Origin: Candidatus Saccharimonadota bacterium
Lineage (GTDB): Bacteria; Patescibacteriota; Saccharimonadia; Saccharimonadales; JACDFO01
Assembly: GCA_013815785.1 (NCBI GenBank)
Contig: JACDFO010000004.1
Coordinates: 1-32,469 of the forward strand
DNA: 32,469 nucleotides
Direction: 5' to 3'
Shown here piece after piece: positions 18,562 through 27,566 of the stretch. The translations under genes and the position numbers were made by a program. Numbering within the stretch: the stretch's first letter is position 1; each line of letters starts with the position of its first letter. The notes under the pieces were generated by a model. It was not told the DNA's origin and searched no databases. It was given only the letters and a program-made list of their open reading frames with translations.

Positions 18562-19650
18562 CTACTTACTAACGTTGAAGCGAAATTCTACGACATCACC
18601 CGGCTTCATTATGTATTCCTTGCCCTCGGCACGGACCTTTCCGGCAGATTTAGCAGCCGTTTCTGAACCTGCAAGTATCAAATCATTGTAGTCAGTTACT
18701 TGCGCAGCGATGAAGCCACGCTCAAAATCACCATGGATTACTCCAGCTGCCTGCGGGGCAGTTGAACCTTGGTTGATTGTCCAAGCCCGCACTTCTTTTT
18801 CGCCAGCAGTCAGATAGCTTTGTAGTCCTAAGGTTTTATAAGCAGCATGTATAAGCTGCAGAAGCCCTGATTCTTTTACACCATAGCTGTCCAGCATTTC
18901 TTTTTGGTCTTGTTCGTCCAGGCTTTGTAATTCATGCTCTAGCTTGGCGCAGACGAATACGCACTGGGCGGGTGCTATAAGTTCAGCTAGCTGATTTTGT
19001 TTGGCGATATCGGTGAGACCGGCTTCGTCGACATTAAATACATATATGACAGGTTTAGCTGTAATAAGCTGCAATTCTTTTAGAATTTCTTGGTTATTGC
19101 TAATTATATCCGGTGTTGCAAACAGGGGAGTAGCGGTATCAAGAACACTCTTGATTTGTTCAAGGCCTTCGGCCAGTGGCCGCAGCTTTGGATTTGCGCG
19201 GGCTTCTTTTTGGATTTGTGGCAAACGACGTTCTACGGTTTGCAAATCAGCCAATACCAACTCGGTATTGATAACCTCAATATCTTTCCCAGGATTGTAT
19301 TCGGTATCAACATGCGTAACGTTTGGGTCGTCAAAAGCGCGCACCACATGTGCAGTTGCATTCGTCGTACGAATATTAGCCAGAAACTGGCTGCCTAAGC
19401 CTTCGCCCTTGCTGGCTCCCGCTACCAAGCCGGCAATATCGATGAACGTCACAGTAGCCGGAATAATCTTCTGGCTTTTATATAGCTCGGCAAGCTTGCC
19501 GAGCCGTTCATCCGGAACAGGAACGATCCCGGTATTCGGCTCTATTGTCGCAAATGGATAGTTAGCCGCCAAAATATTATTATTGGTCAACGCATTGAAC
19601 AGAGTAGACTTACCTACGTTCGGCAGACCAACAATACCTATAGCTAACAT
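18562..19650 (-). CDS. ychF: Obg-like GTPase/ATPase YchF
   Basis: MLAIGIVGLPNVGKSTLFNALTNNNILAANYPFATIEPNTG; C-terminal TGS-like domain; internal Met chosen as start. Confidence 0.95.
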   Translation of the reverse strand: MLAIGIVGLPNVGKSTLFNALTNNNILAANYPFATIEPNTGIVPVPDERLGKLAELYKSQKIIPATVTFIDIAGLVAGASKGEGLGSQFLANIRTTNATAHVVRAFDDPNVTHVDTEYNPGKDIEVINTELVLADLQTVERRLPQIQKEARANPKLRPLAEGLEQIKSVLDTATPLFATPDIISNNQEILKELQLITAKPVIYVFNVDEAGLTDIAKQNQLAELIAPAQCVFVCAKLEHELQSLDEQDQKEMLDSYGVKESGLLQLIHAAYKTLGLQSYLTAGEKEVRAWTINQGSTAPQAAGVIHGDFERGFIAAQVTDYNDLILAGSETAAKSAGKVRAEGKEYIMKPGDVVEFRFNVSK

Positions 19651-19705
19651 GTTAACCAATTTTTCATTTTCATCTGTTAATGATAACACAGAAAGATGAC
19701 TTACC

Positions 19706-20459: not shown

Positions 20460-20634
20460 ATCTAAACCCACAATCTTTTCATATCTCGGGTGAATGCTTT
20501 TGCTCGCTATGTTCCTTAAGTATTTTGAAGGTGAGGGAATATGGTAGGGTTACAACTTCACTGTGCGTGTACTGAGTGAACTCATATGCTCGTTATTGTA
20601 ACACCTTAGAGGAAAAGGGAGCGGTACGTTACTA

Positions 20635-20663
20635 TTGACAAAAACATGTATTATGTGTATAAT
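20635..20663 (+). promoter_or_regulatory. promoter TTGACA-17-TATAAT (module copy 1)
   Basis: Perfect consensus; near-identical promoter in copy 2. Confidence 0.88.
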
Positions 20664-20700
20664 GTAAATTACTTTAATAAACATAAAAAGAGTAAAAATT

Positions 20701-21036
20701 ATGCAAAACAACGAACAAAATTCTAGCAACGAAGTTAACTCAGCGAAATCCGATAAGCGTACGCGTCTAATTCAAAAATTTATTGTTGGTGGCTTGGGTG
20801 CTGGTCTAGTAGCTGCGTCTTTTGCCGCAATCGACGGTTTGGGCGGCTCTGATGAAAAAACACCAGCTATTCCTTCTACCACAGAAGTACCGTCAGCACC
20901 GAGCTCAACTTCGACAGCTGAGGTAGCCCCATCAACTAGCACAAATATAGAAGTGCCTACCACAATGTCCAGTCCCACGCCTAGTATTAGTGAGAATCCT
21001 ATAGTTGTTACACGGGATGATGTGGTTACACCTTAA
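20701..21036 (+). CDS. small membrane-anchored Thr/Ser/Pro-rich protein (module copy 1)
   Basis: N-terminal basic region + TM-like segment (FIVGGLGAGLVAASFAA), Ser/Thr/Pro tail; paralog at 24092. Confidence 0.75.
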   Translation: MQNNEQNSSNEVNSAKSDKRTRLIQKFIVGGLGAGLVAASFAAIDGLGGSDEKTPAIPSTTEVPSAPSSTSTAEVAPSTSTNIEVPTTMSSPTPSISENPIVVTRDDVVTP

Positions 21037-21094
21037 TAGCATCAAGCTATTGTTTGTGGCTGTCGACTTAATGAAGTTGCATGGCAGGCAACAA

Positions 21095-22672
21095 TTAAGT
21101 TTTTAAGTTACTCTTTAGGTGTTTTTTGCGGTTTTGGGTAACAACGATCAAAGTAAAAGTGCCAACAATAAAAGCGCTTACTAAAAGCGGCCATTCACCG
21201 AGCTTTGTGTAAAAAGTTTTATTAGATTCGGGAGTAAACTCAAAATCAATAAAAGCTGTTTTGGTATCTTCCGGCGCGACAATGTATTTACCGTCACCAT
21301 CTATTACAAAAGCGGAAGCACCCATAGATGCCTGGATATACGTACGATGGTTTGCCACCGCATGAAAACGTGCCATCTGCAGCGACTGGCGAAAATAAGC
21401 CCTCGAGCCGCTAAAAATCACGAGCGACGCGCTGTTTGTTAATACTTGGCCGCCGTCGTTAACTAGCTGCCGATATATGTTTCGACCAAGTATGCCAGAG
21501 CAGGCGACGGGCGCTATAGTTAAACTTTTAGTACGAATAACTCTTGGTGCGTCGCCCCTATATAGCCTTCGGGTAGTATCAAATGATGTATTAATCGAAT
21601 TCTGACCGGACAATTTGAAAAAAACCTGCAATATACCAGGCAGGTATTCACCGGTTGGAATAAGCAATTGTTTGGTTTGTGCGTCTATCAGCTCATTCTT
21701 ATGATCACGTGCTTCGAGTATGCCGTATCGAACGTCTGTTTTTGTAAAATCTGCGGTAACGTCAATGTTAACACCGTCCTCACCCAGCCGCTTGTTAACA
21801 TATTTATCTACAAATTGCTCATTGCCGGGTAAATGTGCCGCGGAATATTCGGTAAGTACAATGACATCTTTTGGAGTATCTTGTTTGTTTATAATTCCTG
21901 TGTTTTCCGAGATGTCTGTTAGGAGACCTTCACGCTGCAATACACTGGCCGCTACCGGTGGTAGTGCGCTGCCGGGTGTCAGTACAAAATAGCTTAAATA
22001 ACTTGCTAATGTACTGGCCACTAACACGGCTAACAGTGGTTTATAGTGTTTTTTTAGCGCCCAGAGCAATGTGAGGGCAATGCATACAACCAGCATGCTT
22101 AAACCGTATATGCCTATCAATCGACTGAGATACCCAAGCGGTGTAGAAATTAATCCCAAACCTAGACTGCCAAAGTTCCAGTAATCACCTATACTCCCAC
22201 TTGTCGCATATAAAAATATCGAGAAAGCTAGGCTACGCGCCCATTCAACCACCACCCAAGCGCTGGCAAGCACCAACAATGCCCATAAATCAGGTTTCTT
22301 GAGGCGGGTCTGGAGTCTATGTATGACAAGTCCGAAAGGCAAGCTAGCCAGAGTAAGCACCATGCTCATAATCAGGGCACAGAGGCCCAAGAAAGTCTTT
22401 GCGTATTGAGGATCCAACCCTGCAAGCAGCGTAACATCGGTATCCAGAAACCATATAAGAACTACGAAGTAATAACTAAAGAAAAATAGAACACTGAGTT
22501 TAAGGCTTTGTCTAAGATTCAAAGTTTTTTCGGGCATGGTAAATAGCAGTAAAAAAGGGAGCAGTAAAACCGGCAAAAAAAGGGCTGGCAGACCGAAGGA
22601 ATAAACTCCTCCGACTGCCAGCCCACTAAGCGCAGCAATATAAAACTTGAAATTGCTTACATAGCGCTCCAT
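21095..22672 (-). CDS. apolipoprotein N-acyltransferase-like (Lnt-like) multipass protein with nitrilase domain (copy 1)
   Basis: N-terminal TM helices; VLTEYS, KQLLIPTGEYLPG, APVACSG, FRQSLQMARFHAVANHRTYIQAS correspond to Lnt nitrilase motifs. Confidence 0.82.
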   Translation of the reverse strand: MERYVSNFKFYIAALSGLAVGGVYSFGLPALFLPVLLLPFLLLFTMPEKTLNLRQSLKLSVLFFFSYYFVVLIWFLDTDVTLLAGLDPQYAKTFLGLCALIMSMVLTLASLPFGLVIHRLQTRLKKPDLWALLVLASAWVVVEWARSLAFSIFLYATSGSIGDYWNFGSLGLGLISTPLGYLSRLIGIYGLSMLVVCIALTLLWALKKHYKPLLAVLVASTLASYLSYFVLTPGSALPPVAASVLQREGLLTDISENTGIINKQDTPKDVIVLTEYSAAHLPGNEQFVDKYVNKRLGEDGVNIDVTADFTKTDVRYGILEARDHKNELIDAQTKQLLIPTGEYLPGILQVFFKLSGQNSINTSFDTTRRLYRGDAPRVIRTKSLTIAPVACSGILGRNIYRQLVNDGGQVLTNSASLVIFSGSRAYFRQSLQMARFHAVANHRTYIQASMGASAFVIDGDGKYIVAPEDTKTAFIDFEFTPESNKTFYTKLGEWPLLVSAFIVGTFTLIVVTQNRKKHLKSNLKT

Positions 22673-22687
22673 TGGTTTAGGACTCGA

Positions 22688-23788
22688 CTAGTATACACTC
22701 ACAAAGCGATGTGTTACGAATGTTCGGCCGTTAGAACCCCGCACCGCCCCTACTCCCAAATATTCCCAAGCGGAATCTAGAAGATTAGCATTGTGCCCAG
22801 GACTATTTATGAAAGCCTGCATGAGACCGGCTGAATCATAGCCAACACCGACGTTCTCGCCGAGTTTGTTCCATCTGCTTCCATAGCACTGAGTGCCCGC
22901 ACCACCTAAATTTGGATCGTGGCTAATTCTACCCGCAGCCACCATCTTACGAGTCCATTCATAGGCTTTGCCGATCATGCACGTATTGCCTACTGCTAGG
23001 ATACTTTTACCACTGGCCTTTCGATGGTTGTTTATTCGATTGTGTTGATCAGATCCATACGCTGTGTCGTCCTGGCCGACACTGCAACAAGCTGAAGCTT
23101 TTGGTGTCAATAGTTCGTCCGCCTGGGTTACTAGACTTTTCTTAGTTCCATTGATTTTGGGTTCACGAGGTTGTTTTATATTGCTACGGTTTTCGCTTTT
23201 GGTGGCTTTTGCACAAACTGCTTGAAGTTTTTCTTGAGCTTTTGCAAACTTGGCTGGTTTTTGCGCGCCAGCGTATACAGCAGTGCCTTTTGCACTTTCT
23301 GCTCCACCAACGACAAATCCTTCGAATTGAATCAATGCGTCCTTATTGCCTACAGTGATTTCATCCGCCAATGAAGTGACTTCGGTAGCCACGATATCCT
23401 GATGAAGCTTCTCGACTTCCTTTTTACTCAACATGCCGGTGGTCACTGTCGTAGTGTTGCTGGAACCTGGGTCACAGACAAGTGTACCGTCGGCTTGCAC
23501 ATAAGTTACTGCCGGATACATCTCATATGCAGTATTTCCATTTTCATCCTGGCTAATATTAGTCGGCTTTAGGTCAATGTAACCGACGACAATATCATCG
23601 GAATATGTAGGTAGGTCCGGCTTGGCGCCAATTTGAAACAGCGCAAAAACGCCGACTGCCGCAAAGGCTAGCACGAACAGTGCCAGCCGTGAATTGCGCA
23701 AGCCGGCAAACGGCAAGTTAGTATTTGTTGATTTTTTGGATTTTGAAACCGCTGTTCGTTTTTTTGAAGACCCGGCTGTTTTAGCCAT
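22688..23788 (-). CDS. membrane-anchored CAP/SCP-domain protein with Lys/Ser-rich N-tail (copy 1)
   Basis: HNRINNHRKASGKS...GENVGVGYDSAGLMQAFINSPGHNANLLDSAWEYLGVGAVRG CAP signature; one N-terminal TM. Confidence 0.87.
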   Translation of the reverse strand: MAKTAGSSKKRTAVSKSKKSTNTNLPFAGLRNSRLALFVLAFAAVGVFALFQIGAKPDLPTYSDDIVVGYIDLKPTNISQDENGNTAYEMYPAVTYVQADGTLVCDPGSSNTTTVTTGMLSKKEVEKLHQDIVATEVTSLADEITVGNKDALIQFEGFVVGGAESAKGTAVYAGAQKPAKFAKAQEKLQAVCAKATKSENRSNIKQPREPKINGTKKSLVTQADELLTPKASACCSVGQDDTAYGSDQHNRINNHRKASGKSILAVGNTCMIGKAYEWTRKMVAAGRISHDPNLGGAGTQCYGSRWNKLGENVGVGYDSAGLMQAFINSPGHNANLLDSAWEYLGVGAVRGSNGRTFVTHRFVSVY

Positions 23789-24010
23789 AAGATCGCTCCC
23801 TTTAGAATTACTAATGTTACGCTTATGCTAGTCTACCTTTTGTATTTTGTAAAGAGATACTTCTAAACCACTCGTCCAGTCCAATAGTGCTTTATGTAGC
23901 ACTCGTCAAAGTTCGGTGGTTGTTCTACGATAAAAGTTTTGCGAAAAGCGGTGTTGAATGGTATTGATGCGTCCGGTTAGTGCCGATACTAAGTGAGCGG
24001 TAGGTAACTA

Positions 24011-24039
24011 TTGACAAAAATACAGATTATGTGTATAAT
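24011..24039 (+). promoter_or_regulatory. promoter TTGACA-17-TATAAT (module copy 2)
   Basis: Perfect consensus; paralogous to 20635-20663. Confidence 0.88.
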
Positions 24040-24091
24040 GTTAATTACATTATTACATTATTAAAATTAAAAATAAATAAAGTAAAAATCA

Positions 24092-24427
24092 ATGCAAAAC
24101 AACGAACAAATTCCTACAAACGAGGTCAACCTAACCAAATCCGATAAGCGTACGCGTCTAGCTCAAAAAGTCGTTCTTGGTGGCCTGGCTGCCGGCCTGG
24201 CAGCAGCATCTTTTGCGGCAGTCAACGGCTTGGGCGGCTCTGATGAAAAAACACCAGCTGGTACTTCTACCACAGAAGTACCTACAACTGATACAAGCGC
24301 CTCTGTTAATATCAGCGAAAACCCTACTCTCATTACTCCAGAAAATTCGGGTACATCTCAGCCCGAAGCCAAAGTTAGCGAAAACCCGGTATTAATAACC
24401 CCCGAAGATACCAGCACAATTAATTAA
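24092..24427 (+). CDS. small membrane-anchored Thr/Ser/Pro-rich protein (module copy 2)
   Basis: Shares MQNNEQ..NEVN..KSDKRTRL.QK...GGL.AGL.AASFAA..GLGGSDEKTPA with 20701; SENPxLITPE repeat. Confidence 0.77.
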   Translation: MQNNEQIPTNEVNLTKSDKRTRLAQKVVLGGLAAGLAAASFAAVNGLGGSDEKTPAGTSTTEVPTTDTSASVNISENPTLITPENSGTSQPEAKVSENPVLITPEDTSTIN

Positions 24428-24571
24428 CCATAATCCTGCAGACCGGTTTTAGTAGGAATTATGCTAAGCCTAAGTTTATCTTCCAACTCAAGCTCTGAGT
24501 GGATAAGGCTGTTTTGTAATTGACTTGGGATGCTTCATAGATTAATTAATAATTTTTTGTAGTAGTAGAGG

Positions 24572-26167
24572 TCAGCTGTATCGACGATTTTTAGTACGCG
24601 TTTTAAAATTTCTTCCAACTGAAATTATGATTAAGAGTGAACTCAGTATAAGTGGCCATTCACCGTAATTTGTGTAGAACGTTTTTTTGTCCGTGGCGGC
24701 GAAATTAAAATCTATGAACTTGTCTTCTACATTTCCTGGTTTTACTATGTAATTTCCATTATCATCAATTACAAAAGCCGGTGCTCCTTTCGACGCCTGT
24801 ATATATGTGCGATTATTGGCGATAGCATGAAATCGTGCCATCTGGAGCGATTGTTTAAAGTAAGACTTAGAGCCGTTAAACACTACCAAAGAAGCGCTGT
24901 TGGTAAGCACTTGGCCGCCATCATTAACTAGCTGTCTGTAAATGTTTCTGCCTAATATACCCGAGCAGGCAACCGGGGCAATAACCAGGTCTTTCGTCTT
25001 AAATACTGCCGGGTCAGTACCTTTTAGAAGTTGTCTGGTCTCAGCATATTCGGTATTGAGTTCGTTCTTACCGATTAGTTTGAAAAAATTAGTCAAAATA
25101 TAGGGCATATATTCTCCCGTTGGTATAAGAAGTTTTTTGGTCTGTGTTGCGACTATTTCTTTTTGATCGTTTCTAAATATAAGCGTGCCGTATCTGTTAT
25201 TTTGATTCAGCCAATCCGCTTCTACCGTTATGCCTACACCATTCGGGGCTAAACGGTTATCGATATAATCCTGGGCGTACTGGGTATACCCAAGTTCAAA
25301 AAAATCTGAGTATTCTGGTAATACGATGATATCTTTTGCCTCTGTAGAAAAATTATCTATGATAAAGTTAGTACCTGATTTTGGTACGCTATCTCTTTGT
25401 TGCAGTACGCTCGCGCTACGCTGGTTACTTGGTTGTGAATTTAGGTTAATCTGCCAAATCACAGAAAAAAAGATTACAAGTCCTAAAACAGAAAGCGTGT
25501 GGAGAGTATACCGACTGTTGGCTTTGGTAAAATAATTATACAAAATTACAGATAATATAACTGTAATAAAAGTAAGTCCATACATGCCAACTACTGGTGC
25601 CATAATCTTAGCCGGTGTATCCATAAGTTCCAGTCCTAGGCTACCGAAATTCCAATAATCACCAACACTACCCTGGTTTCCATATAAAAATACTGAAAAT
25701 AATATGCTTCTTAACCATTCACACACGACCCAAGCTGCAGGCAATAATACAAGGCGTGCGGTAGGTTTACGGAAAGCACTTGCATAAGCAACGTAGGCTA
25801 TAGGCAACATTGCAAGACTGAGAACAATAGCCATAATGGCTAAGCACGTACCCAAAGCAATAGTGGTGATGCGCGGGCTGACGTCTATCAATCCCGGCAA
25901 GTTTGCATCTAGAAACCAGACGAATACTGTTGCATGAAACGGAATGAAGAACAGGGCACACGATGATATGTAGCGGCGAAGGGTACTTCTATTATCCGGC
26001 TTATAGAGGAGTGCGATAAAGGGAAGCAGTAATAGTGGTTGCAACCAAGCGGATAGGTTGAATGAAAAAACACTACCAACCGCTACTCCACTAACAACTA
26101 GTATTAGCTTAGAGTAGCGGTCTAGCAGCCTAGTTGCAGCATCATGCTGCTTGCTTGTTTGAGGCAA
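24572..26167 (-). CDS. Lnt-like acyltransferase (copy 2)
   Basis: Shares the 33-aa block IAPVACSGILGRNIYRQLVNDGGQVLTNSASLV with copy 1; TM N-terminus; KKLLIPTGEYMP. Confidence 0.82.
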   Translation of the reverse strand: MPQTSKQHDAATRLLDRYSKLILVVSGVAVGSVFSFNLSAWLQPLLLLPFIALLYKPDNRSTLRRYISSCALFFIPFHATVFVWFLDANLPGLIDVSPRITTIALGTCLAIMAIVLSLAMLPIAYVAYASAFRKPTARLVLLPAAWVVCEWLRSILFSVFLYGNQGSVGDYWNFGSLGLELMDTPAKIMAPVVGMYGLTFITVILSVILYNYFTKANSRYTLHTLSVLGLVIFFSVIWQINLNSQPSNQRSASVLQQRDSVPKSGTNFIIDNFSTEAKDIIVLPEYSDFFELGYTQYAQDYIDNRLAPNGVGITVEADWLNQNNRYGTLIFRNDQKEIVATQTKKLLIPTGEYMPYILTNFFKLIGKNELNTEYAETRQLLKGTDPAVFKTKDLVIAPVACSGILGRNIYRQLVNDGGQVLTNSASLVVFNGSKSYFKQSLQMARFHAIANNRTYIQASKGAPAFVIDDNGNYIVKPGNVEDKFIDFNFAATDKKTFYTNYGEWPLILSSLLIIISVGRNFKTRTKNRRYS

Positions 26168-26180
26168 CGCAGATTACCTA

Positions 26181-27314
26181 TTATGGCCAGTTGGCAAAAA
26201 CTTGTGTCGAGTAAATATAGTTGTTCTTCTGGTTTCGGTACGCTGCGGATCCCGTTCGTGTGTGTGTTCTATGGTCGAGGTTCGCACGATGTCCGGAACT
26301 ATTTACGTATGCATTAAAGATTGCTTGCGAATTGTTGTTAGGGTCTTGGCTGCAATTTTCTCCAACTGAGCGCCAGTTATTGCTTGTTGCACCTTCTTTG
26401 TTGCAAACATACAAGAACTCGTTTACCAAATTACTGTTGTGGTACAACTTGTTTTGCTCAGCCTGTCGTTTTGCCTGTAGGTTTGCTAGTTCATTCATAC
26501 AACCTCTTCTTTGGTACTGGTATATACCAAGCGAAGCGCGTCGCTGGTTGGTCAGGTTAAATATATTCGTAGCGTAGTTACTTTCTACACTAACAGGGTC
26601 TGGAGGTTGAGCGGCTACTTTAGGTACAAGCACCTCACTAAAACGCTGTAAGACTGATTGAGTGCTTGCAGCTGCCGTAGGTAATCTGAATTCTTTAGTT
26701 TTGCCACGTTGTTCACGGGTTGTTGCTTTTTCGCACCTACTGAGAATCTTAGCCTGCATTTTGGCTAGTTTATCAGGTTTGGCTGCACCAGCATGGACGG
26801 AAAAGGCGTTAGATTTGCCGTCGCCGTTAATAACGAAACCTTCGTGGGTGCTGATCAGGGCTTCCTGGCCGGCTACTCCTGTTTCGTTTGGCAGACCTTC
26901 TAGTTTCAGATCTCTGATTTCTTGATGCAGGTTCTTTACTTCACCTAAGCCAAGCTGTCCGGTTTGCACAAATCCTTCCTGGTTACCATCATCACAGAGC
27001 AGTGTACCGTCCCCTAATACTAAGTAAGACGCGGTGTAAGATTCGTACACTGCCGAGCCGCCTTCAGCTTGTGTAATCAAAGTTGGCTTAGAATCGTAAT
27101 ATGCAGCGACAACTTCATCGGGACCTGCAAGTAGAGCCGGCTTTGCGCTGGCTTGAAGAAGTAAGAACACGCCGACGACGGCAAAACTAACAGCAAACAG
27201 CAATGTACGCGGATTGCGTAAATCTGTTGCAGGAAACTGTACTTTTTTTGTTGATTTTATTGTTTTCTTCGAAGTTGTTGCTCGTTTTTTTGGAGTCTTG
27301 GCCGATGTAGCCAT
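26181..27314 (-). CDS. membrane-anchored CAP/SCP-domain protein with Lys-rich N-tail (copy 2)
   Basis: NIFNLTNQRRASLGIYQYQ...SVGENCSQDPNNNSQAIFNAYVNSSGHRANLDHRTHTRTGSAAY; same N-tail architecture as copy 1. Confidence 0.86.
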   Translation of the reverse strand: MATSAKTPKKRATTSKKTIKSTKKVQFPATDLRNPRTLLFAVSFAVVGVFLLLQASAKPALLAGPDEVVAAYYDSKPTLITQAEGGSAVYESYTASYLVLGDGTLLCDDGNQEGFVQTGQLGLGEVKNLHQEIRDLKLEGLPNETGVAGQEALISTHEGFVINGDGKSNAFSVHAGAAKPDKLAKMQAKILSRCEKATTREQRGKTKEFRLPTAAASTQSVLQRFSEVLVPKVAAQPPDPVSVESNYATNIFNLTNQRRASLGIYQYQRRGCMNELANLQAKRQAEQNKLYHNSNLVNEFLYVCNKEGATSNNWRSVGENCSQDPNNNSQAIFNAYVNSSGHRANLDHRTHTRTGSAAYRNQKNNYIYSTQVFANWP

Positions 27315-27400
27315 AAAAACATCCCCCTATTAATAAGTATTACCCTTATGCTAAACCCACTAATGTAATTTGTAAAGTTAATACGTGTTAGTGACGGACT

Positions 27401-27537: not shown

Positions 27538-27566
27538 TTGACAATTATACAATAATTTGCTATAAT
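27538..27566 (+). promoter_or_regulatory. promoter TTGACA-17-TATAAT facing the LPxTG cassette
   Basis: Perfect hexamers and 17-nt spacer. Confidence 0.87.

What the first reader, a model, noticed from the sequence alone, without database searches (positions are those of the whole stretch)
20549..27314. Tandem duplication of a three-gene surface module: small anchored protein + Lnt-like acyltransferase + membrane CAP protein
Two consecutive ~3.3-kb units share gene order and orientation: small gene (+), Lnt-like (-), CAP (-). All three proteins are paralogous pairs, and both promoter types are conserved. Small genes share GAGCGGTA.GT.ACTATTGACAAAAA...TATGTGTATAATGT. CAP genes share minus-strand TTTACAAA-17-TAGCATAAG.GTAA. 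Retention of the whole unit in a reduced genome suggests the three products act together. No CAP + Lnt-like + small-protein system is known to me.
Basis: partly seen in the sequence, partly recalled or inferred. Interest (0 to 1): 0.82.

Follow-up and report, generated by a model that had tools for sequence, protein, structure and literature searches.

The report
Orphan Lnt enzymes paired with exported proteins
A tiny Patescibacteria genome that lacks the first two enzymes of lipoprotein making carries two copies of a relative of the third (Lnt), each in a gene pair with a surface CAP protein; the same enzyme family sits beside other, unrelated exported proteins in related genomes, most of which share one rigid N-terminal signal, which hints at an unknown way of modifying or anchoring proteins.

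Summary
Two small/Lnt-like/CAP sets lie in the same order, with exact promoter copies. The reading as one three-gene module made by tandem duplication is only partly right. CAP and Lnt-like form a true pair: a CAP-Lnt-ychF cluster with the same CAP promoter recurs in two genomes of other families. Trees reject lnt1/lnt2 and cap1/cap2 as each other's closest relatives, because pair 1 groups with the G288 pair. The small gene is found only in this genome and its copies diverged later. The wider finding: the Lnt-like family (17 of 296 genomes of the class) has an intact Lnt fold and invariant Glu-Lys-Cys triad, but Lgt and LspA were found in none of 30 genomes tested, and this genome has essentially no lipobox proteins. 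Lnt-like genes lie next to exported proteins whose mature parts are unrelated between Lnt clades (CAP, CHAP, Ig-like, DUF5648) but whose N-termini share a transmembrane signal, G-x6-S-x-A. The signal also occurs in genomes without Lnt, so it does not need the enzyme. Best guess: signal peptidase I cuts after SxA and the Lnt-like enzyme acylates the new N-terminus, a cysteine-free lipid anchor. The chemistry is inferred, not shown.

The parts
20635..20663 (+). promoter of small1, TTGACA-17-TATAAT (12 of 12)
20701..21036 (+). small1: 111 aa, charged N-terminus, one TM, Pro/Ser/Thr-rich outer tail; lineage-specific
21095..22672 (-). lnt1: Lnt-like acyltransferase, 525 aa; triad E275, K334, C391 and E342
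22688..23788 (-). cap1: N-terminal signal-anchor + about 140 aa domain + CAP domain, 366 aa; first gene of the cap1-lnt1 pair
23624..23689 (-). cap1 N-terminal signal, residues 34-55, G46-x6-I53-G54-A55 (variant of G-x6-S-x-A)
23825..23853 (-). promoter of cap1-lnt1, TTTACA-17-TAGCAT, conserved in cap2, G288 and G103
24011..24039 (+). promoter of small2, TTGACA-17-TATAAT (12 of 12)
24092..24427 (+). small2: 111 aa paralogue of small1
24572..26167 (-). lnt2: Lnt-like acyltransferase, 531 aa
26181..27314 (-). cap2: N-terminal signal-anchor + CAP, 377 aa; first gene of the cap2-lnt2 pair
27144..27209 (-). cap2 N-terminal signal, residues 36-57, G48-x6-A55-S56-A57 (variant of G-x6-S-x-A)
27348..27376 (-). 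promoter of cap2-lnt2, TTTACA-17-TAGCAT
18562..19689 (-). ychF GTPase, conserved neighbour of the CAP-Lnt pair in G288 and G103 (context, not part of the system)

Best explanation
Each CAP-Lnt pair is an enzyme-client pair. The CAP protein is exported through its N-terminal transmembrane signal; a signal peptidase I-type enzyme is expected to cut after the A of the (S/A/I)-x-A element (small residues at -3 and -1). The Lnt-like enzyme, by the same ping-pong chemistry as E. [quoted passage not shown] This would replace the Lgt-LspA-Lnt route, of which two of three enzymes are missing. In other lineages the same enzyme family would serve other exported proteins with G-x6-S-x-A signals. Shown: fold, triad, missing Lgt and LspA, linkage, shared signal. 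Inferred: cleavage, acyl acceptor, anchoring.
For: Lnt fold at high confidence (pLDDT 91; best PDB match E. coli Lnt, E 1.8e-20). E275, K334, C391 and E342 invariant in all 24 family members, matching Glu267, Lys335, Cys387 and Glu343 of E. coli Lnt (PMC5500888). Lgt and LspA found in 0 of 30 genomes while controls ring; one doubtful lipobox in the whole own genome. Motif proteins are 22 of 49 direct neighbours of Lnt-like genes against 3 of 122 genes six or more away, and Gly sits at -7 from the Ser far more often than at any other offset. Mature parts of motif-bearing clients are unrelated between Lnt clades. A signal profile built only from Lnt-minus genomes finds a median of 5 hits in Lnt-plus genomes against 0 in Lnt-minus (p 1e-11). 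CAP and Lnt are co-inherited with one promoter.
Against: The signal also occurs in genomes where no Lnt-like gene was found, so export and processing do not need the enzyme; hit counts are not independent of phylogeny. Several loci have no strict motif protein within three genes (L044, L047, L051, L054, L055, L058; the L055 neighbour missed the filter narrowly). Residues Tyr388 and Glu389, essential in E. coli Lnt, are Ser-Gly here, so the acceptor may differ. The two CAPs of this genome carry variants (IGA, ASA) of SxA, and the Lnt-minus profile finds no hit here. The acyl acceptor, cleavage and membrane retention are untested.
Confidence: 0.42

Rival explanations
1. The Lnt-like enzyme acylates a non-protein acceptor (lysolipid, glycolipid or an amino sugar of the envelope), and the neighbouring exported proteins are simply other surface genes in the same islands.
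For: Two Lnt-like clades also lie beside O-antigen-ligase-like membrane proteins; Patescibacteria mostly lack lipid synthesis and CPR membranes are reported rich in lysolipids (PMC7242380), which Lnt chemistry makes or could use; Tyr388-Glu389 are replaced.
Against: Direct neighbours are enriched for one specific signal rather than for surface genes in general: 31 of 67 N-terminal-TM genes within three genes against 3 of 28 six or more away. CAP and Lnt lie head to tail as a pair behind a conserved promoter in three families. Only 17 of 296 genomes have the enzyme, odd for a general lipid role.
Confidence: 0.27
2. The signal is not cut; the protein stays a single-pass anchor, and the Lnt-like enzyme acylates a side chain (Ser of SxA or a nearby Lys) or acts as a membrane partner of the anchor.
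For: The signals are long, with a Lys-rich stretch of about 20-60 residues before the TM and the Gly at a fixed place, which resembles a signal anchor; small residues at these positions are also compatible with helix packing.
Against: S-x-A is the ordinary signal peptidase I cleavage pattern, and the same signal occurs on likely secreted enzymes in genomes without Lnt; a peptidase S26 relative is encoded in the genome, though its best score is to a nickel-SOD maturation protease.
Confidence: 0.14
3. One reading: small protein, Lnt-like and CAP act together as one three-component surface system that was duplicated whole.
For: Order, orientation and promoters repeat; small1 carries G-x6-S-F-A in its TM.
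Against: The small gene is absent beside the CAP-Lnt pair of G288 and G103 and has no convincing relative in the class; its duplication is younger and the other two genes are not sister pairs; small2 lacks the Gly at -7.
Confidence: 0.09
4. A degenerate or hydrolytic nitrilase-fold enzyme with no acyl transfer role (amidase-like or relic).
For: Below the NCBIfam cut-off for Lnt (69.5 and 99.3 against 132.9 bits); loss of Tyr388-Glu389.
Against: Triad and Glu342 invariant over a family with 22-60% identity to lnt1, full-length open frames, conserved membrane domain.
Confidence: 0.08

Closest known systems
Apolipoprotein N-acyltransferase (Lnt), E. coli and P. aeruginosa structures 8b0p, 5n6h, 5n6m
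   Same: Membrane domain plus nitrilase domain, Glu-Lys-Cys triad, Glu343 equivalent
   Different: No Lgt or LspA found, no lipobox clients, Tyr388-Glu389 replaced by Ser-Gly, below the NCBIfam equivalog cut-off, encoded beside exported proteins
YkwD/SCP-like bacterial CAP proteins (PF00188, TIGR02909)
   Same: CAP domain of normal length in both CAPs
   Different: Extra domain of about 140 aa and an N-terminal signal-anchor; this full-length form found only in G000, G288, G103 and weakly G221 among 80 genomes
Dedicated enzyme and sorting-signal systems (sortase/LPXTG, exosortase/PEP-CTERM, rhombosortase; from general knowledge)
   Same: Unrelated exported proteins share one short signal and lie beside a membrane enzyme
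   Different: Signal is N-terminal, enzyme is an acyltransferase, and the signal also occurs where the enzyme was not found

Membership tests
Apolipoprotein N-acyltransferase (Lnt) | LNT_N membrane domain plus nitrilase domain fold | tested here: met
   Pfam LNT_N above cut-off in both; CN_hydrolase below cut-off; AF2 model matches Lnt over full length, TM 0.73
Apolipoprotein N-acyltransferase (Lnt) | Catalytic Glu267-Lys335-Cys387 and Glu343 | tested here: met
   E275, K334, C391, E342 invariant in 24 sequences
Apolipoprotein N-acyltransferase (Lnt) | Essential Tyr388-Glu389 after the nucleophile (PMC5500888) | tested here: not met
   Cys-Ser-Gly (20 members) or Cys-Ser-Ser (4) instead
Apolipoprotein N-acyltransferase (Lnt) | NCBIfam equivalog score TIGR00546 | tested here: not met
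   69.5 and 99.3 bits, cut-off 132.9
Apolipoprotein N-acyltransferase (Lnt) | Works downstream of Lgt and LspA on lipobox proteins | tested here: not met
   Lgt and LspA 0 of 30 genomes, own genome included; one doubtful lipobox in 953 ORFs. The Lgt control missed B. subtilis, so sensitivity is not perfect
Apolipoprotein N-acyltransferase (Lnt) | N-acylation of diacylglyceryl-cysteine | not testable with these tools
   needs biochemistry
CAP superfamily (PF00188) | CAP domain above curated cut-off | tested here: met
   37.0 and 34.2 bits, cut-off 21.1
YkwD subfamily (TIGR02909) | score above cut-off | tested here: not met
   42.8 and 39.4 bits, cut-off 171
Signal peptidase I signal peptide | small residues at -3 and -1 after a hydrophobic stretch | tested here: met
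   S-x-A in the 40 aligned signals, which were chosen for it; A-S-A in cap2 fits, I-G-A in cap1 has a larger residue at -3
Signal peptidase I signal peptide | cleaved in the cell | not testable with these tools
   needs N-terminal sequencing

The most novel reading that the evidence does not exclude
A cysteine-independent protein lipidation route in Patescibacteria: signal peptidase I exposes an N-terminus at a rigid G-x6-S-x-A signal and an orphan Lnt-type enzyme N-acylates it, with each Lnt clade serving its own linked client family.
Probability: 0.33. Interest if true: 0.85.

Novelty: new variant of a known kind. Interest (0 to 1): 0.6.

Why it matters
Patescibacteria live on the surface of other cells, yet how they fix proteins to their own surface without lipoprotein enzymes is open. 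An Lnt family that survives without Lgt and LspA, beside exported proteins with one shared signal, gives named genes and a named signal with which to test this. If true, it would add a second route for lipidating bacterial proteins and show how the last step of a three-step pathway can be kept and re-used after the first two are lost.

Tried and rejected
(1) One recent tandem duplication of three genes: rejected by AU tests and codon divergence. (2) Small gene as a conserved component: not found elsewhere. (3) Signal strictly dependent on Lnt: rejected, since the same signal occurs in Lnt-minus genomes. The first signal profile (A4) was circular because it was built from Lnt neighbours; it was repeated with a profile from Lnt-minus genomes only (A7). 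(4) Classical lipoprotein pathway: no Lgt, LspA or lipobox clients. (5) CAP model: low confidence (pLDDT 57) with no significant fold match, so not used. (6) A wider family: in 290 genomes over the phylum strong matches occur only in this class. (7) A first promoter pattern had the wrong spacer and found nothing; corrected. (8) Literature: no paper found on Lnt in Saccharibacteria or Patescibacteria.
Full report
OBSERVATION. The window holds two successive sets of genes in the same order and orientation: small(+), Lnt-like(-), CAP(-). The proteins are paralogous: small 55-57%, Lnt 47%, CAP 34-36% identical. Pfam gives LNT_N for both Lnt-like proteins and CAP for both CAP proteins.

HISTORY. 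The Lnt tree is (G103,(lnt2,(lnt1,G288))) with high support. Holding lnt1 and lnt2 together is rejected (p 0.0018), and so is holding cap1 and cap2 together (p 0.0004) (the CAP tree has only five rows and long branches). Lnt1 is 60% identical to the G288 enzyme but 47% to lnt2; cap1 is 48% identical to the G288 CAP but 36% to cap2. So the CAP-Lnt pairs split before this genome and G288 parted (or one pair came by transfer), and CAP and Lnt were inherited together. The small genes are much closer in third codon positions (60% against 34% and 38%) and have no convincing relatives in 296 genomes of the class. They are a later, local addition or have been kept alike by conversion.

THE CONSERVED UNIT. 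In G288 (L029, titled Patescibacteria group bacterium) and G103 (L030), which belong to other families, one CAP-Lnt pair lies directly upstream of ychF. In this genome ychF lies two genes beyond lnt1. All four CAP genes share a promoter of the form TTTACA-17-TA(G/C)CATAAG(x)(x)TAA (read by eye for L029 and L030). The class name (Saccharimonadia) is an inference; the tool gives only codes.

THE ENZYME. The Lnt1 model is confident (pLDDT 91) and its best matches in the PDB are E. coli Lnt structures (E 1.8e-20, TM 0.73, 18% identity). In 24 relatives E275, K334, C391 and E342 (lnt1 numbering) never change and align with Glu267, Lys335, Cys387 and Glu343 of E. coli Lnt. Tyr388 and Glu389, called essential in PMC5500888, are replaced: Cys-Ser-Gly in most, Cys-Ser-Ser in four. 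Both proteins fall below the NCBIfam cut-off for Lnt. The family was found in 17 of 296 genomes of the class (weak or fragmentary further hits not counted), and among 290 genomes over the phylum strong matches occur only in this class.

NO LIPOPROTEIN PATHWAY. Lgt (PF01790) and LspA (PF01252) gave no match in any of 30 genomes (16 with and 14 without the Lnt-like gene), while the controls rang in 9 and 10 of 14 known genomes (the Lgt control missed B. subtilis). The whole own genome, fetched in pieces, yields 953 ORFs with one doubtful lipobox. The usual Lnt substrate therefore seems not to exist here.

NEIGHBOURS ELSEWHERE. Reading the neighbours of the Lnt-like genes showed exported proteins with a Lys-rich N-terminus, one TM and a short end motif. 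Aligned on S-x-A, 40 such signals, picked by eye, have Gly at exactly seven residues before the Ser in every case. As the picks could be biased, I counted mechanically: the motif is in 22 of 49 direct neighbours, 9 of 74 at distance 2-3, 10 of 65 at distance 4-5 and 3 of 122 at six or more; within three genes against six or more, Fisher p 1.3e-7 over all genes and 9e-4 among N-terminal-TM genes. Gly at offset 7 was seen 44 times, at offset 8 seven times, at others at most three. Neighbouring genes in one array are not independent, so the p-values are optimistic.

CLIENTS DIFFER BY CLADE. Clustering the mature parts shows that each of five Lnt clades has its own motif-bearing neighbour family: CAP; Ig-like and a second repeated family; CHAP and peptidoglycan-binding; DUF5648; and one unnamed family (domains). 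What the clades share is the N-terminal signal, not the protein. A few non-motif neighbour families are shared between clades.

THE SIGNAL WITHOUT LNT. The same signal is present in genomes where no Lnt-like gene was found, usually on single exported proteins. It is therefore a general export signal of this class, and the strict claim that Lnt is needed for it is refuted. To test association without circularity I built a profile from Lnt-minus genomes only (A7): Lnt-plus genomes have a median of 5 hits against 0 (p 1e-11); 13 of 17 against 20 of 279 have three or more. Against Lnt-minus genomes outside the large family f2 that have at least one hit, p is 9e-5. Phylogeny was not corrected for. 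The own genome had no hit with this profile; its two CAPs carry the variants G-x6-I-G-A and G-x6-A-S-A.

MECHANISM. Shown: an intact Lnt-type enzyme, no upstream lipoprotein enzymes found, close linkage to exported proteins with a fixed N-terminal signal. From established knowledge: Lnt acylates an N-terminus that a signal peptidase has exposed, using phospholipid as donor (PMC10313180); S-x-A fits signal peptidase I. Inferred: that the Lnt-like enzyme acylates the N-termini left by cutting after S-x-A and so keeps the client on the membrane. A peptidase S26 relative exists in the genome but scores best as a nickel-SOD maturation protease; a full signal peptidase I was not established. The main rival is acylation of a lipid or glycan, since CPR membranes are reported rich in lysolipids (PMC7242380) and two Lnt clades lie beside O-antigen-ligase-like proteins.

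VERDICT. Observation confirmed, module reading corrected: a CAP-Lnt pair, not a CAP-Lnt-small module. The pair is one case of an orphan Lnt family that points to an unknown protein modification in Patescibacteria. Anatomy is solid; function is a testable proposal.

Noticed in passing
window:27658-28389 and G000 loci L135, L145, L155, L159: LPXTG-type surface proteins (four) and a sortase (L159:15496-16176, Pfam E 4.8e-26): this genome also has ordinary sortase anchoring. The window protein lies downstream of a third perfect TTGACA-17-TATAAT (27538-27566).
   Followed up: partly
window:20701-21036, 24092-24427, 26181-27314: The small-protein tails repeat SENP(I/T/V)(V/L)(I/V)T; cap2 holds KPTLIT near the start of its outer domain. 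It may be chance or an interaction motif.
   Followed up: no
L094 (G026:C17): A short remnant of the Lnt C-terminus (G026:C17:10254-10349, E 7e-5, one stop) lies near an 839-aa protein with the G-x6-S-x-A signal in a genome without an intact Lnt-like gene found: a possible recent loss.
   Followed up: partly
L045, L049, L056: Lnt-like genes of two clades lie near related O-antigen-ligase-like membrane proteins and a shared family of single-TM proteins.
   Followed up: no
L087 (G158): At the ychF locus of a genome without Lnt-like gene found, a 687-aa protein with the signal stands two genes away, as if the client had stayed without the enzyme.
   Followed up: no
L147:13598-15001: The third signal candidate of the own genome, a 467-aa protein with GLYMTFGTSA and a second TM near the C-terminus; no Pfam family.
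   Followed up: partly
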